This document shows, piece by piece, positions 54,186 to 63,648 of a stretch of 64,000 bases of DNA (position 1 is the first letter of the stretch; each line of letters opens with the position of its first letter). The notes below the pieces were generated by a model that was given only the letters and a program-made list of their open reading frames with translations, was not told the DNA's origin and did no database searches. The position numbers and the translations under genes were made by a program. Source of the DNA: Thermoproteus uzoniensis 768-20 (GTDB taxonomy: Archaea; Thermoproteota; Thermoprotei; Thermoproteales; Thermoproteaceae); NCBI RefSeq assembly GCF_000193375.1, contig NC_015315.1, positions 1-64,000 on the forward strand, given 5' to 3'.

Positions 54186-54407
54186 ATGGCGGTGGTCAAG
54201 GTGACGCGCAACTTCCAGATAACGATCCCGGCGGATGTCAGGAAGGCGTTGGGCATCCGCGAGGGGGACCGCCTGCTGGTGGAGGTCGAGGGCGACCGGA
54301 TAGTGATAAGGAAGGCGGCGGGCGCGTTGCCGAGGATTAGGCTGGGGATGAGGCTGGCGCCGGAGGACATAGACAGAGTTATAGAACAAGGCGTAGCCGA
54401 TGGGTGA
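54186..54407 (+). CDS. vapB: AbrB-type antitoxin
   Basis: 73 residues. KVTRNFQITIPADVRKALGI with EGDRLLVEVEGDRIVIRKA is the swapped-hairpin DNA-binding domain; the rest is the toxin-binding tail (APEDIDRVIEQG). It overlaps the PIN toxin gene by 8 bases, as usual for vapBC operons, and would repress its own promoter (GTTTTTAAG box near 54157-54165). Confidence 0.9.
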   Translation: MAVVKVTRNFQITIPADVRKALGIREGDRLLVEVEGDRIVIRKAAGALPRIRLGMRLAPEDIDRVIEQGVADG

Positions 54408-54795
54408 GGCGGTCGTCGACACGAACGCGGTGATATACTACGTAGTCGAGGATTCGCCGTTTCATGGGGAGGCCGAGGCGCTCCTCGACGCCCTAGACTT
54501 CTGGCACCTCCCCACCGTCGTCGTGCACGAACTAGTGTGGTTTTTCAAGAAGGCGGCGCCGGATAGGGGGATCGAGGTCTTGAGGGCTCTCCTGGGCTAC
54601 GAGAAGGTCGTCGTGGAGTGCGAGGACTTGGCGTCGTTGAGAAAGGCGGTCGGCGCGAGTCTCGCCTACTACAACGACCTAGTAGTTATCTTGACGGCGA
54701 GGAGGCTCGGCCTTCCCCTGGCAACCTTCGACAAGAGGATGGCGAAGAGGGCCGAGGCTCTTGGGGTTCCGGTGCTCGGGCCTCGGGGCGATTAA
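54400..54795 (+). CDS. vapC: PIN-domain ribonuclease toxin
   Basis: 131 residues. The four acidic PIN residues are visible: D7 in VVDTNAVIYY, E44 in VVHELVWFFK, D93 in YYNDLVVIL and D111 in LATFDKRM. Length is typical of VapC. It would cleave RNA (often tRNA or rRNA) unless bound by the VapB encoded just before it. Intact, in contrast to the VapC remnant at 38845. Confidence 0.92.
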   Translation: MGEAVVDTNAVIYYVVEDSPFHGEAEALLDALDFWHLPTVVVHELVWFFKKAAPDRGIEVLRALLGYEKVVVECEDLASLRKAVGASLAYYNDLVVILTARRLGLPLATFDKRMAKRAEALGVPVLGPRGD

Positions 54796-57373: not shown

Positions 57374-57928
57374 GTGGACGTGGAGGTTCTTGAGAGGCCC
57401 CTCCCCAAGCCCTCCGCCGAGGACTACGTCTCTGCCCGCCTCCTAGAGGCCCTCGTGGAGGCCGGGCTGGCTTTGAGATTTCTGAGAGAGGGCTTTGTGA
57501 GGAACGCCGCCGGCAAGGCCTTCCAGGCGTGGAAGGCGTTTATGGCCGCCCTCCTTAGACTTGACCTAGACAAGTTGAAGGCTCTGGCGAGAAGCGAAGA
57601 CGAGAGGCGTTGGCTAGAATCCACGGCGGTGCCCCGTGTGCCCACCAGCAGAATGACCGCCCTCTCGCAGATGCTTGAAGACGCAGGCCACACAAAACTT
57701 TCCTTCGCCACAGACAAGGCACTTAAACTACACGACTACCAGTACCACGGGCCGGACCCCGACATGGCTCTGTCGAAGTATAGGGATAGGGGAGAGGCGG
57801 CGAGAGACGTAGTCCTCCTCTTGAGAGAACTCGCCGAGAGGGCAGAGGCGTTGAGGGGGAGAGTCAAGTGGAGCGAAGAGCTGGAAAAGGCGCTGGAGGA
57901 GCTGAGGAGAGGGCTTCTGGCGCGTTGA
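57374..57928 (+). CDS. PaREP1/PaREP8-type repeat-family protein
   Basis: 184 residues, the closest relative of the gene at 31736: DVEVLERPLPKPSAEDYVSA, LVEAGLALRFLREGFVRNAA, LHDYQYHGPDPDMALSKY. It is also the best parent for the remnant at 5770-5912. Helical, HEPN-like, of unknown function. A run of bases encoding VSARLLEALVEAGLALRFLR is almost the same in all copies, which points to recent copying or conversion. Confidence 0.82.
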   Translation: MDVEVLERPLPKPSAEDYVSARLLEALVEAGLALRFLREGFVRNAAGKAFQAWKAFMAALLRLDLDKLKALARSEDERRWLESTAVPRVPTSRMTALSQMLEDAGHTKLSFATDKALKLHDYQYHGPDPDMALSKYRDRGEAARDVVLLLRELAERAEALRGRVKWSEELEKALEELRRGLLAR

Positions 57929-58321: not shown

Positions 58322-58405
58322 TTACCACTCTTCCTCCTCTTCCCACTCCTCCTCGAACTCTTCCCACAGCTCCTCCTCTTCCTCCCACTCCTCCTCCCGA
58401 GGCAT
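58322..58405 (-). CDS. 27-residue Glu/Trp-rich acidic peptide
   Basis: From ATG at 58405 the frame reads MPREEEWEEEEELWEEF and continues as Glu/Trp-rich repeats to TAA at 58322. It contains 18 glutamates, five tryptophans and no other hydrophobics beyond single L and F, with net charge strongly negative. It starts about 24 bases beyond a TATATAAA box read leftwards, the spacing of a leaderless gene, and a longer in-frame extension would cross that box. Trp at intervals of 4-7 could line one side of a helix. It might be an acidic protein-binding peptide; no family known to me. Confidence 0.6.
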   Translation of the reverse strand: MPREEEWEEEEELWEEFEEEWEEEEEW

Positions 58406-58424
58406 AGGTCTGGCTGGGGAGGGG

Positions 58425-58432
58425 TATATAAA
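58425..58432. promoter_or_regulatory. Shared TATA box between two divergent leaderless genes
   Basis: TATATAAA, nearly palindromic. Its centre is about 24 bases from the ATG of the E/W-rich peptide (58405, minus) and about 27 bases from the GTG at 58456 (plus). Only 50 bases separate the two starts and no second box is visible, so one element probably serves both directions. Confidence 0.6.
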
Positions 58433-58455
58433 GATGCGCTCTATTGAGCCCGTTG

Positions 58456-59037
58456 GTGGAGCCGGTAGCTGTCCGGAGGGCCTACATAGAGGGGATAGCG
58501 CAACGGAGGATCCGCTACACACTGCTATATAGCGAGCCCGCTCCCCTCTCTGCGCTCCTCGACCGCGCGCGGGCTTACGCCAGAGAGATAGCGGGCGAGT
58601 GGGGCGCCTCTCTATGCCCCTCGGAGCTTCCCAGCCTCGGCGTGCTCTCGGTGGGCTGGCTCGGCGGGACCCTCCTGGCCGATCTATCCGTGTGCTTCCC
58701 GATATCTAGGCCCCTCCCGCCGGATTTGGGCCTCATCCTCGCCGCCGAGTTTAGGGAGGTGTCGATCTGCCTCGAGCCCATAGGGCCCGTGGGCCCCGTC
58801 GAGGGGTTCTCCCGGTCGAGGATGCCCGCGTTGAGGCCCAGAGGCGTGATCCTAAGGGACGGCGTCGCCGTGGTGAAGATGCGGGGTCTCTACTTCTTTG
58901 CGAGGGCCGAGGCGCGCCCCGACCCCGCAGGCGGGGTCCTGCTCGACGTGGCCAGGCTGGGGTGCGGCGGCGTGGACCCTCTGCGGGGCCTCTTGGAGGC
59001 CCGGCGTATACTCAGACGTCGGGATAGGAGAGCATGA
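58456..59037 (+). CDS. Hypothetical protein divergent from the acidic peptide
   Basis: About 193 residues beginning VEPVAVRRAYIEGIAQRRIR (first V read as Met), with an alpha/beta-looking middle (SLGVLSVGWLGGTLLADLSV, then FREVSICLEPIGPVGP) and a basic C-terminus. No family recognised. The GTG at 58456 is chosen because it is placed for a leaderless transcript from the TATA box; TTG at 58444 or 58453 is possible. Its end overlaps by 26 bases the converging TnpB-like gene. Confidence 0.6.
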   Translation: MEPVAVRRAYIEGIAQRRIRYTLLYSEPAPLSALLDRARAYAREIAGEWGASLCPSELPSLGVLSVGWLGGTLLADLSVCFPISRPLPPDLGLILAAEFREVSICLEPIGPVGPVEGFSRSRMPALRPRGVILRDGVAVVKMRGLYFFARAEARPDPAGGVLLDVARLGCGGVDPLRGLLEARRILRRRDRRA

Positions 59038-59743
59038 AGACCTCGCGCAGCTCGGCGAGTTGCTCCATCCTCCCGAGCCTCCTTATTATGTTCCTGGCCA
59101 GCGTCCACGCGGCGTTGACGTCCCTATTGAGCTGGACCTTGCAACGGGGGCAGTAGACGAGGCGTCCCTTCTTCACCATCCTCCCGCCGCAGACGGGGCA
59201 GACGTCGGAGAGCATGGTCGTGTGGAGCTCCACGAAGTGCTCCCGGCCGATGGCGAGGAGGTCTTTGAGGTGTTTTTCGTACTGCGGCATCATGGGTATG
59301 TCGGCCACGAGTACGTTGACGCCCTTCTTGGGCACGAAGGCCTCCGATATGCTCGACGCAACTCCCTTGGCTAGGAGCTCCGTGTAGCCGCCGAGCCTGA
59401 AGACTCTGTAGGCTATGCCGGCCTCGTTGACGTCCATGGCGTGCACTATGAGGGGACTGCCCTCTATCAGCTCCCTTAGCCCGAGCCTCTCGTCGTCTCT
59501 CACGAGCCTCACGACGGATCTACCGCCCTTGACGTAGACCTCGGCCTTGGATAGGCCCAGCTGGGCCAGATCGGTGTAGGTGAGGCGCCAGGACTTGTAC
59601 ATGCATATGGGCATGTCGTCGAGGTAGAGCGACACGACGGACTCGACCAGTCTGACGGGCCCTCCCAGCTCGACCACGGCGTAGTCGCCGCCGATCGCCT
59701 CCCTCGCCTTCTCGGCGTCGCATTTGAGGCTGTACGTCAGCAT
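59012..59743 (-). CDS. TnpB-like RuvC/zinc-ribbon protein, probably nuclease-dead
   Basis: 243 residues. The C-terminus is the zinc ribbon and last RuvC motif of IS605-type TnpB: CPVCGGRMVKKG (C182, C185), CPRCKVQLNRDVNAAWTLAR (C198, C201, D208). VHAMDVNEAGIAYRVF (D104) fits RuvC-I. The RuvC-II strand, normally ending in a catalytic Glu (VVEDL-type), reads NVLVADIPMM with Ala147 in that place. It is about 140 residues shorter than TnpB, and the I-II spacing is also reduced. No TnpA, terminal hairpins or guide-RNA-like end is seen. Probably an exapted, inactive relative. ATG at 59743. Confidence 0.65.
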   Translation of the reverse strand: MLTYSLKCDAEKAREAIGGDYAVVELGGPVRLVESVVSLYLDDMPICMYKSWRLTYTDLAQLGLSKAEVYVKGGRSVVRLVRDDERLGLRELIEGSPLIVHAMDVNEAGIAYRVFRLGGYTELLAKGVASSISEAFVPKKGVNVLVADIPMMPQYEKHLKDLLAIGREHFVELHTTMLSDVCPVCGGRMVKKGRLVYCPRCKVQLNRDVNAAWTLARNIIRRLGRMEQLAELREVFMLSYPDV

Positions 59744-59770: not shown

Positions 59771-60526
59771 TCAGACGCCGATCCTTACCCCGAGCTCGGC
59801 CACCTTCCTGTTCAAGTCCCTCAACAACGACTTGACGTCCACCTCCACCACCCTCCCATCAACTATGTCGACGTGTATCCAGTCGTGCGGCACTTGAAGT
59901 CCCTTGGCCCTCGCGACCCTTATCCTCCTTATGAAGAGGCCCATCTGCTCCAGATCGGGGTCCATCTCCGCCTGTATTATGACGTCGGCTAGATGTTCGG
60001 CGAGGGCCAGAGTGTTCTTCACGTCTTCCACGTCTGTGTGGACTACCCCGACGACGAGCGAGCCGGTGTACTTGGCGAAGATCTTGAGGCCTCTAAACAG
60101 CTCGAAGACGTTGGAGGTCCTTAATATGATCTCGTTGAGGGAGTCTATCACCACGACGCCGCCCCTCACCTCGTCGGCGAGCTCCGCCAGCTTGTCCAAG
60201 ACGGCCTTCGTGTCGAGGACGTCGAGCTTGGCCTTGCCCCACCCCTTCATCTTGTTGAGTCTGTCGGTCGGGGCGTAAAACCCGTCCACAATGGCGACGG
60301 AGCCCGGATCTACGCCTCTCCTCCTGAGCGTCTCCGCCACGTCTTCGGGCAAGGCGTCTACGGCGAAAACGGCCGCCGGCGCCTTGGCCTTGGCCGCCGA
60401 GACGGCGAAGCAGTACGCGAAGAAGGTCTTCCCAACTCCGAGAGGCCCTTCGAGCAACACGAGGTAGCCGGGCGGAAGCCCGTCCGGCGGCAACAGATCG
60501 TCGATGGGGCCTATCCCGGTCTTCAT
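59771..60526 (-). CDS. KaiC/RadA-like RecA-fold ATPase
   Basis: 251 residues, one KaiC-type domain. TGIGPIDDLLPPDGLPPGYL starts the fold, Walker A EGPLGVGKTFF lies near 25-34, Walker B GGVVVIDSLNEIIL near 122-135, then the VVGVVHTDVED sensor strand and IIQAEMDPDLEQMGLFIRRI. Single-domain KaiC-like proteins are common in crenarchaea and linked to signalling or motility in some. 27 bases separate it from the TnpB-like gene on the same strand, so the two may be co-transcribed. A TATAAATAT at 60544-60552 is its probable promoter. Confidence 0.85.
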   Translation of the reverse strand: MKTGIGPIDDLLPPDGLPPGYLVLLEGPLGVGKTFFAYCFAVSAAKAKAPAAVFAVDALPEDVAETLRRRGVDPGSVAIVDGFYAPTDRLNKMKGWGKAKLDVLDTKAVLDKLAELADEVRGGVVVIDSLNEIILRTSNVFELFRGLKIFAKYTGSLVVGVVHTDVEDVKNTLALAEHLADVIIQAEMDPDLEQMGLFIRRIRVARAKGLQVPHDWIHVDIVDGRVVEVDVKSLLRDLNRKVAELGVRIGV

Positions 60527-60599: not shown

Positions 60600-61475
60600 G
60601 TGTCTGCGATAAGGCCGTTCGACCCCTGGAAGAACCCGCTTTGTCCCTGTCCGCCCAAATACGGGCTGAACCCCTACACCGGGTGCGGCCACTCATGCGC
60701 CTACTGCTACATATCGGGCTATATACCGAGGGCTTTCCAGCCCAGGCCCAAGGAGGACCTCCTGGAGAGGGTGAGGCGCGATGTCAAGAAGCTGCCGCCG
60801 GGCTCCGTGATCTCGCTCTCCAACTCGTCCGACCCCTACACGCCGCCGGAGGCCGAGCTCCGCCTAACGCGGAGAGCCCTCTCGTTAATACTTGAGGCGG
60901 GGCACAAGGTCTTGATAGTCACCAAGTCCCCCCTGGTCTTGAGAGATCTCGACATCTTGTCGAAATACCCTGGGAGGGCCGTGGTCCAGATCACCGTGAC
61001 GACGCTGGACGAGAGAATAGCCGAGAGGCTCGAGCCGCGGGCGCCTAGGCCCTCGGCCCGGCTGGAGGCGGCGAGGAGGATAGCCGAGGCGGGGATCCCG
61101 GTGGGCGTGAGGCTCGACCCCATAGTGCCCTACGTCAACGACTCGCCGGAGTCCCTATCGGCAGTAGTGGCCGCCGCGGCCGAAGCCGGCGCGAGGCAGT
61201 TGGTGGCCAGCACCTACAAGGCGAAGCCCGACAACTTCGCCCGGCTCGTCAAGGCCTTTCCCGAGGCGGCGGACAAGCTGAGGGAGCTCTACTGGGTCAG
61301 GGGCGTCTACATGCACGGCCAGAGGTATGCCCCGGCCGAGTACAGGAGGGCTGTCCTGGAGCGCGTCAAGCGCGAGGCGGAGGCCAGAGGGCTCCAGTTC
61401 GATATATGTAGGGAGGAGTTCTTCGACCTCAACACGCCTGGGACCTACTGCGACGGGAGCCACTTGCTCCGGTAG
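60600..61475 (+). CDS. Radical SAM protein (SplB/Rv2578c-like)
   Basis: 291 residues. The 4Fe-4S/SAM motif is GCGHSCAYCYISG with C29, C33 and C36. ISLSNSSDPYTPPEAELRLT, VLIVTKSPLVLRDLDIL and VGVRLDPIVPYVND follow the partial TIM barrel of the spore-photoproduct-lyase-like group. An extra cluster of cysteines near the N-terminus (LCPCPPKYG) and C-terminus (DICREEFF, TYCDGSH) may hold another cluster. Reaction unknown. GTG start about 24 bases after a CTTTTAAC box. Confidence 0.85.
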   Translation: MSAIRPFDPWKNPLCPCPPKYGLNPYTGCGHSCAYCYISGYIPRAFQPRPKEDLLERVRRDVKKLPPGSVISLSNSSDPYTPPEAELRLTRRALSLILEAGHKVLIVTKSPLVLRDLDILSKYPGRAVVQITVTTLDERIAERLEPRAPRPSARLEAARRIAEAGIPVGVRLDPIVPYVNDSPESLSAVVAAAAEAGARQLVASTYKAKPDNFARLVKAFPEAADKLRELYWVRGVYMHGQRYAPAEYRRAVLERVKREAEARGLQFDICREEFFDLNTPGTYCDGSHLLR

Positions 61476-63079: not shown

Positions 63080-63556
<477 letters not shown>

Positions 63557-63648
63557 GCCCCCTGGAGGAGGCCGCGTCACGGAGGCGGACGCCGCCCCTC
63601 GGGGCCTCACGCCGGGGGCCTGAAGAGATGTGGGCCTCTCTATTTATA

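What the first reader, a model, noticed from the sequence alone, without database searches (positions are those of the whole stretch)
59012..59743. Diverged TnpB relative with the RuvC-II glutamate replaced
Zinc ribbon and DVNAA motif identify TnpB ancestry, but the protein is only 243 residues, Ala147 occupies the expected catalytic Glu position, the N-terminal recognition part is reduced, and no transposon ends or TnpA are nearby. It lies 27 bases from a KaiC-like ATPase on the same strand. TnpB-derived, nuclease-dead regulators exist in bacteria; an archaeal chromosomal version paired with a RecA-fold ATPase would be new.
Basis: partly seen in the sequence, partly recalled or inferred. Interest (0 to 1): 0.7.

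Follow-up and report, generated by a model that had tools for sequence, protein, structure and literature searches.

The report
Domesticated minimal TnpB protein in Thermoproteaceae
A jumping-gene nuclease (TnpB) was taken over by one family of heat-loving archaea, stripped of the parts that would hold its RNA guide, and kept in essentially every member; its active-site acids seem to be kept rather than lost, so it is probably a small guide-free nucleic-acid enzyme and not a dead RNA-guided switch.

Summary
The gene (59012-59743, minus strand, 243 aa) is real and TnpB-derived. An AlphaFold model (pLDDT 91.6) finds only TnpB and Cas12 structures at the top. It is a single-copy, vertically inherited gene in 18 of 19 Thermoproteaceae genomes, under strong purifying selection (dN/dS 0.06-0.12), with no full-length orthologue in 62 other genomes of the class.

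(1) "Ala147 replaces the Glu" is probably off by one. Each step along the chain of relatives puts the canonical Glu on Asp148, which is invariant in all orthologues and in 43 related TnpB-likes. The triad is most likely D104-D148-D208, acidic and not lost. Position 147 is only a variable V/A/I. (2) The ATPase neighbour holds in Thermoproteus only. In Pyrobaculum it lies 0.6-7 kb away in other orientations, and in the third genus it is not nearby. (3) The reduction is larger than stated: the helical REC domain and the long helical insert inside RuvC are both missing. That is nearly the whole guide-binding apparatus, which argues against a TldR-like regulator.

Best reading: a domesticated, guide-free RuvC nuclease or nucleic-acid-binding protein of unknown substrate. 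It is a new variant of a known kind, of moderate interest.

The parts
59012..59743 (-). gene of the minimal TnpB-derived protein, 243 aa (stop codon 59012-59014)
   Evidence: ORF; 18 orthologues, 42-91% identity; dN/dS 0.06-0.12
59459..59743 (-). N-terminal WED-like beta domain (residues 1-95), six strands as in canonical TnpB but with the REC helices reduced to one 8-residue helix
   Evidence: secondary structure of the two AlphaFold models
59078..59458 (-). RuvC / RNase H-fold domain (residues 96-222), lacking the long helical insert between strands 3 and 4
   Evidence: RuvC-I to RuvC-II distance 44 residues, against 81-96 in canonical TnpB
59432..59434 (-). Asp104, RuvC-I acidic residue (motif DVNE)
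   Evidence: invariant in 18 of 18
59300..59302 (-). Asp148, the likely RuvC-II acidic residue (Glu to Asp), last residue of strand 4
   Evidence: invariant in 18 of 18 orthologues and in 43 relatives; register
59303..59305 (-).
59228..59230 (-). Glu172 in strand 5, invariant in the family
   Evidence: not at the Fanzor alternative-Glu spacing (PMC10711439)
59141..59200 (-). zinc ribbon C182/C185...C198/C201 (TNB domain)
   Evidence: PF07282; invariant
59120..59122 (-). Asp208, RuvC-III acidic residue (RDVNA)
   Evidence: invariant in 18 of 18
59771..60526 (-). KaiC-like single-domain ATPase, 27 bases upstream on the same strand; an operon-like partner in Thermoproteus only
58444..59037 (+). 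convergent ORF of 197 aa, overlapping the 3' end by 26 bases; conserved in Thermoproteus and the third genus
60600..61475 (+). radical SAM protein; the commonest shared neighbour found (15 loci), adjacent to the ATPase in most Thermoproteus and Pyrobaculum loci

Best explanation
A Thermoproteia lineage of TnpB whose RuvC-II glutamate had already changed to aspartate gave rise, in the ancestor of Thermoproteaceae, to an immobile single-copy host gene. The protein lost the helical REC domain and the long helical insert inside RuvC, the parts that hold guide RNA and the guide-target duplex in TnpB. It kept the WED-like beta domain, the RNase H-fold core, an acidic triad D104-D148-D208 and the zinc ribbon. 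It most likely acts without a guide RNA, as a small metal-dependent nuclease or nucleic-acid-binding protein that recognises its substrate by itself or through a partner. Shown here: ancestry, fixation, constraint, loss of both helical parts, conservation of the acids. Inferred: that the three acids form a working metal site, and that no guide RNA is used. Unknown: substrate and partner.
For: The model (pLDDT 91.6, pTM 0.89) finds ISDra2 TnpB first (E 1.6e-5, probability 1.00), and all nine PDB matches at E <= 0.001 are TnpB or Cas12. Orthologues occur in 18 of 19 Thermoproteaceae, once each; the one without is 73% complete. None is full length in the other 62 genomes of the class or in viral contigs and plasmids. 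dN/dS is 0.06-0.12. The family joins a clade of TnpB-likes that all carry Asp at RuvC-II (support 0.997; the sampled relatives come from Thermofilum-type and Thermoproteales genomes). It matches that clade by BLASTP at 4e-8 and hhalign at 98.3%. Gap-free register scores favour D148 on the Glu at each step: family to Thermofilum-type 13.6 against -5.9, Thermofilum-type to Pyrobaculum-type 12.4 against 4.3, Pyrobaculum-type to canonical 10.4 against -4.5. RuvC-I to RuvC-II is 44 residues against 81-96, and the N-terminus is 104 residues against about 184. The six WED strands correspond one to one with a canonical model, while helices 8-39, 45-58, 60-64, 67-89, 199-217 and 223-257 of that model have no counterpart beyond two short stubs.
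Against: No coordinates could be inspected, so the geometry of D104-D148-D208 is inferred. A Glu-to-Asp change can weaken or abolish catalysis. The canonical TnpB model is only fair (pLDDT 83, pTM 0.53). Support for placing the family inside the Asp clade is modest (0.81-0.91), and its branch is long. Nothing shows nuclease activity.
Confidence: 0.6

Rival explanations
1. A catalytically inactive TnpB-derived nucleic-acid-binding protein: the remodelled RuvC pocket only binds structured DNA or RNA, perhaps in translation or RNA metabolism, since the Pyrobaculum copy lies divergently beside aIF1A.
For: Direct comparison with canonical TnpB aligns A147 with the Glu. The gene is divergent from an aIF1A gene within 60-130 bases in several Pyrobaculum loci. 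The protein is basic, pI 8.5-9.4.
Against: D104, D148 and D208 are all invariant across orthologues as little as 42% identical. An inactive pocket would be expected to lose at least one, although binding alone can also conserve acids.
Confidence: 0.27
2. A TldR-like, nuclease-dead, RNA-guided regulator working with the KaiC-like ATPase.
For: TnpB-derived RNA-guided repressors exist (PMC13418256). The two genes are 27 bases apart in the window, and the ATPase is next to the gene in Thermoproteus.
Against: REC and the RuvC helical insert are gone. There is no suppression of synonymous change at the 3' end of the gene, where a TnpB guide RNA would begin. A convergent gene overlaps the 3' end in the window, and a co-directional gene begins 5-40 bases downstream (or overlaps the end) in several Pyrobaculum loci. 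No RNA family was found at the gene. The ATPase is not a partner in Pyrobaculum or in the third genus. The acid is probably retained.
Confidence: 0.06
3. A rearranged active site in which invariant Glu172 of strand 5 replaces the lost RuvC-II Glu, comparable to Fanzors and pro-Fanzor TnpBs.
For: Glu172 is invariant in 18 of 18 and lies in the strand next to the one carrying RuvC-II. Many Asp-clade relatives also carry a Glu in that strand.
Against: The Fanzor alternative Glu lies six residues before the first zinc Cys (PMC10711439), whereas nine residues separate E172 from C182 and Thr175 occupies the Fanzor position. Several canonical TnpBs already have Glu at the E172 position beside an intact RuvC-II Glu.
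Confidence: 0.05
4. A decaying or still mobile transposon remnant.
For: TnpB homology; related multi-copy TnpB-likes in other genomes of the class.
Against: One copy per genome, no other TnpB and no Y1 TnpA in the genome, no ends, vertical distribution, dN/dS about 0.1.
Confidence: 0.02

Closest known systems
TnpB of IS200/IS605 and IS607 elements (ISDra2 TnpB, PDB 8h1j)
   Same: RNase H-fold RuvC domain, WED-like N-terminal beta domain, zinc ribbon, DVNE and RDVNAA motifs
   Different: no REC helices, no RuvC helical insert, Asp for Glu at RuvC-II, no guide RNA or transposon context found, single copy and vertical
Asp-type TnpB-like clade of Thermoproteia (multi-copy in Thermofilum-type and Pyrobaculum genomes)
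   Same: Asp at RuvC-II, the VADVP/VVDLP motif, shared clade (support 0.997) and a detectable C-terminal BLASTP match
   Different: those are roughly 350-550 aa, multi-copy and keep a full RuvC I-II spacing (87-141 residues against 44)
TldR, TnpB-like nuclease-dead repressors
   Same: TnpB-derived, immobile, kept in the genome for a host or prophage role
   Different: TldRs keep guide-RNA and DNA binding with an inactivated RuvC; here the acids are kept and the guide-binding parts are lost
Fanzor / pro-Fanzor TnpB with alternative Glu
   Same: non-canonical RuvC-II region
   Different: the Glu spacing that defines them is absent; the RuvC-I motif is DVN, not DPG

Membership tests
TnpB (RNA-guided nuclease) | RuvC / RNase H fold with TNB zinc ribbon | tested here: met
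TnpB (RNA-guided nuclease) | D-E-D catalytic triad | tested here: not met
TnpB (RNA-guided nuclease) | helical REC domain | tested here: not met
   one 8-residue helix where the canonical model has about 90 residues of helices
TnpB (RNA-guided nuclease) | guide (omega) RNA encoded at the 3' end | tested here: inconclusive
   no synonymous constraint at the 3' end, no RNA family match, neighbouring genes at or over the 3' end; expression not testable
TnpB (RNA-guided nuclease) | carried by a transposon with TnpA or ends | tested here: not met
   single copy; the genome's only serine resolvase match lies about 1.4 Mb away in contig coordinates
TldR | RuvC acidic triad inactivated | tested here: not met
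   three invariant Asp residues; register rests on alignment
TldR | retained guide-RNA-binding lobe | tested here: not met
TldR | RNA-guided repression of a target promoter | not testable with these tools
   needs RIP-seq and ChIP-seq
Fanzor / alternative-Glu TnpB | Glu six residues before the first zinc Cys, with DPG at RuvC-I | tested here: not met
   T175 at that place and DVN at RuvC-I (definition from PMC10711439)

The most novel reading that the evidence does not exclude
A TnpB has been turned into a guide-free, minimal RuvC nuclease that is a core gene of a whole archaeal family: the opposite route to TldR, losing the guide and keeping the catalytic acids.
Probability: 0.4. Interest if true: 0.72.

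Novelty: new variant of a known kind. Interest (0 to 1): 0.5.

Why it matters
TnpB domestications known so far keep the guide RNA and either keep cutting (Cas12) or stop cutting (TldR). A family-wide core gene that drops the guide-binding parts and keeps the acids would be a third route. It would show that the TnpB RuvC core can work alone, and would give one of the smallest thermostable TnpB-derived scaffolds. The Asp-type TnpB clade behind it, multi-copy in several archaea, raises a testable question about Glu-to-Asp RuvC sites.

Tried and rejected
A Fanzor-like relocated Glu was considered because E172 is invariant; its spacing does not fit the published definition (PMC10711439). Replacement of a missing Hjc or RNase HII was tested: both are present in every Thermoproteaceae genome searched, 19 of 19. 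The ATPase operon was rejected from 17 orthologous regions. A hidden guide RNA was looked for by synonymous-site variation and Rfam; nothing was found. Viral and plasmid sources of the family: none found. Sequence searches of solved structures were too weak to use. Papers on this gene or on Asp-type TnpBs: none found in the library; the papers by Altae-Tran 2023 and Wiegand 2024 were not held, so prior description there cannot be excluded.

Full report
The object. The ORF at 59012-59743 (minus strand, ATG, 243 aa) is real. It is the only TnpB-zinc-ribbon match in the 1.94 Mb genome and the only match to the TnpB model NF040570 there. Pfam PF07282 scores 32.3 bits against a cut-off of 26.3. No Y1 transposase is present; the genome's single serine-resolvase match lies about 1.4 Mb away in contig coordinates. 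No transposon-like repeats flank the gene.

Distribution. Orthologues of 243-244 aa occur once each in 18 of 19 Thermoproteaceae genomes: Thermoproteus, Pyrobaculum and a third genus, by handle groups and record titles. Identity to the window protein is 42-91%. The genome without a match is 73% complete. A profile search of 81 genomes of the class finds no full-length relative outside the family, only zinc-ribbon matches to other TnpBs. Viral contigs and plasmids hold none. dN/dS between close pairs is 0.06-0.12. This is a host gene and not a mobile one.

Fold. The AlphaFold2 model on 18 orthologues has pLDDT 91.6 and pTM 0.89. Its best PDB matches are ISDra2 TnpB (8h1j, E 1.6e-5, probability 1.00), Cas12f, Cas12g and ISFba1 TnpB; all nine matches at E <= 0.001 are TnpB or Cas12. 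The viral library also returns TnpB-like transposases first.

Which parts are missing. A canonical archaeal TnpB (L142, 351 aa) was modelled for comparison (pLDDT 83, pTM 0.53). Both models have a short first strand, then six WED strands, then the RuvC core. The canonical model has helices 8-39, 45-58, 60-64 and 67-89 (REC) between the first strand and the WED strands; the family has a single helix, 10-17. The canonical model has helices 199-217 and 223-257 between RuvC strands 3 and 4; the family has one four-residue helix, 132-135. Distances agree: RuvC-I to RuvC-II is 44 residues in all 18 orthologues, 81-96 in 23 TnpBs and 87-141 in 43 Asp-type relatives; RuvC-II to the first zinc Cys is 34-35 against 48-67 and 40-55. 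Both helical parts that embrace the guide-target duplex in TnpB are gone.

The RuvC-II residue. Position 147 is V (12), A (5) or I (1), while the next residue, Asp148, is invariant. The relatives say otherwise. The nearest relatives are Thermofilum-type proteins (BLASTP 4e-8 over the C-terminal 111 positions; hhalign 98.3%) that carry VADVP or VVDVP where the family carries VADIP or VVDLP. These align in one register with Pyrobaculum-type proteins, and those align without gaps, through the preceding helix, with canonical TnpBs: KLAHKLAQKALKYRAGVII[D]D beside KLAKQIVLKALRRGHAIAL[E]D. Scores with the acid on the acid, against a shift of one, are 13.6 against -5.9, 12.4 against 4.3 and 10.4 against -4.5 along the chain. 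In the AlphaFold models strand 4 ends exactly at the catalytic Glu of the canonical protein (E264) and exactly at Asp148 here. The best reading is Glu to Asp, with a triad D104-D148-D208. Coordinates could not be inspected, so the geometry remains an inference.

Phylogeny. On 173 columns of the RuvC domain the family is monophyletic (1.0) and joins 43 TnpB-likes, all with Asp at RuvC-II, with support 0.997, apart from canonical TnpBs; its place inside that clade has support 0.81-0.91 and a long branch. Several genomes hold many diverged copies of Asp-type proteins (22 and 15 matches in two Thermofilum-type genomes; copies mostly 61-86% identical).

Neighbours. In Thermoproteus the KaiC-like ATPase is directly upstream (12-29 bases). 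In Pyrobaculum it is 0.6 to about 7 kb away, downstream or upstream and on either strand, and it is not nearby in the third genus. The ATPase sits beside the radical SAM gene more consistently than beside the TnpB-like gene. Pyrobaculum loci instead have a co-directional metallophosphoesterase gene 5-40 bases downstream (or overlapping the end) in several cases, and a divergent aIF1A gene (families 15 and 7, identified by reading the sequences and not by a profile search). No partner is common to all three genera.

Guide RNA. Synonymous variation at the 3' end of the gene is no lower than elsewhere, the 3' end is overlapped or closely followed by other genes, and Rfam reports nothing at the gene. 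This is negative evidence only.

Function. The retained acids and zinc ribbon and the lost guide-binding parts point to a guide-free, metal-dependent nuclease or nucleic-acid binder. It does not fill in for a missing Hjc or RNase HII: both are present throughout the family. Substrate and partners are open. Prior description of the family could not be ruled out, because key papers on TnpB diversity are not in the library.

Noticed in passing
L056, L058, L102-L135 and related loci (Thermofilum-type and Thermoproteales genomes): A multi-copy clade of TnpB-like proteins in Thermoproteia has Asp instead of Glu at RuvC-II throughout (43 of 43 sampled), with up to 22 matches in one genome; whether these are active RNA-guided nucleases is untested.
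   Followed up: partly
canonical TnpB set (for example L155, L156, L161): Six of 23 archaeal TnpBs have Gly at the RuvC-II position in the alignment; they may carry the alternative Glu or be inactive.
   Followed up: no
window 63552-63619 (-): Match to Rfam PyrR201, a Pyrobaculum H/ACA-like small RNA, above its gathering score (55 against 49 bits).
   Followed up: no
window 58322-58522 (-): ORF of 66 aa whose C-terminal end is almost purely acidic and Trp-rich (EEEWEEEEELWEEFEEEWEEEEEW, approximately); low-complexity DNA, coding status unclear.
   Followed up: no
window 57374-57928 and 63095-63556 (+): A PaREP1-family protein (PF05942, 94.7 bits) and, by eye, a second similar one 5 kb further on; a lineage-typical repeat family.
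   Followed up: no
window 54186-54407 and 54400-54795 (+): Overlapping small genes that by eye look like an AbrB-type antitoxin and a PIN-domain toxin (a VapBC-type pair).
   Followed up: no
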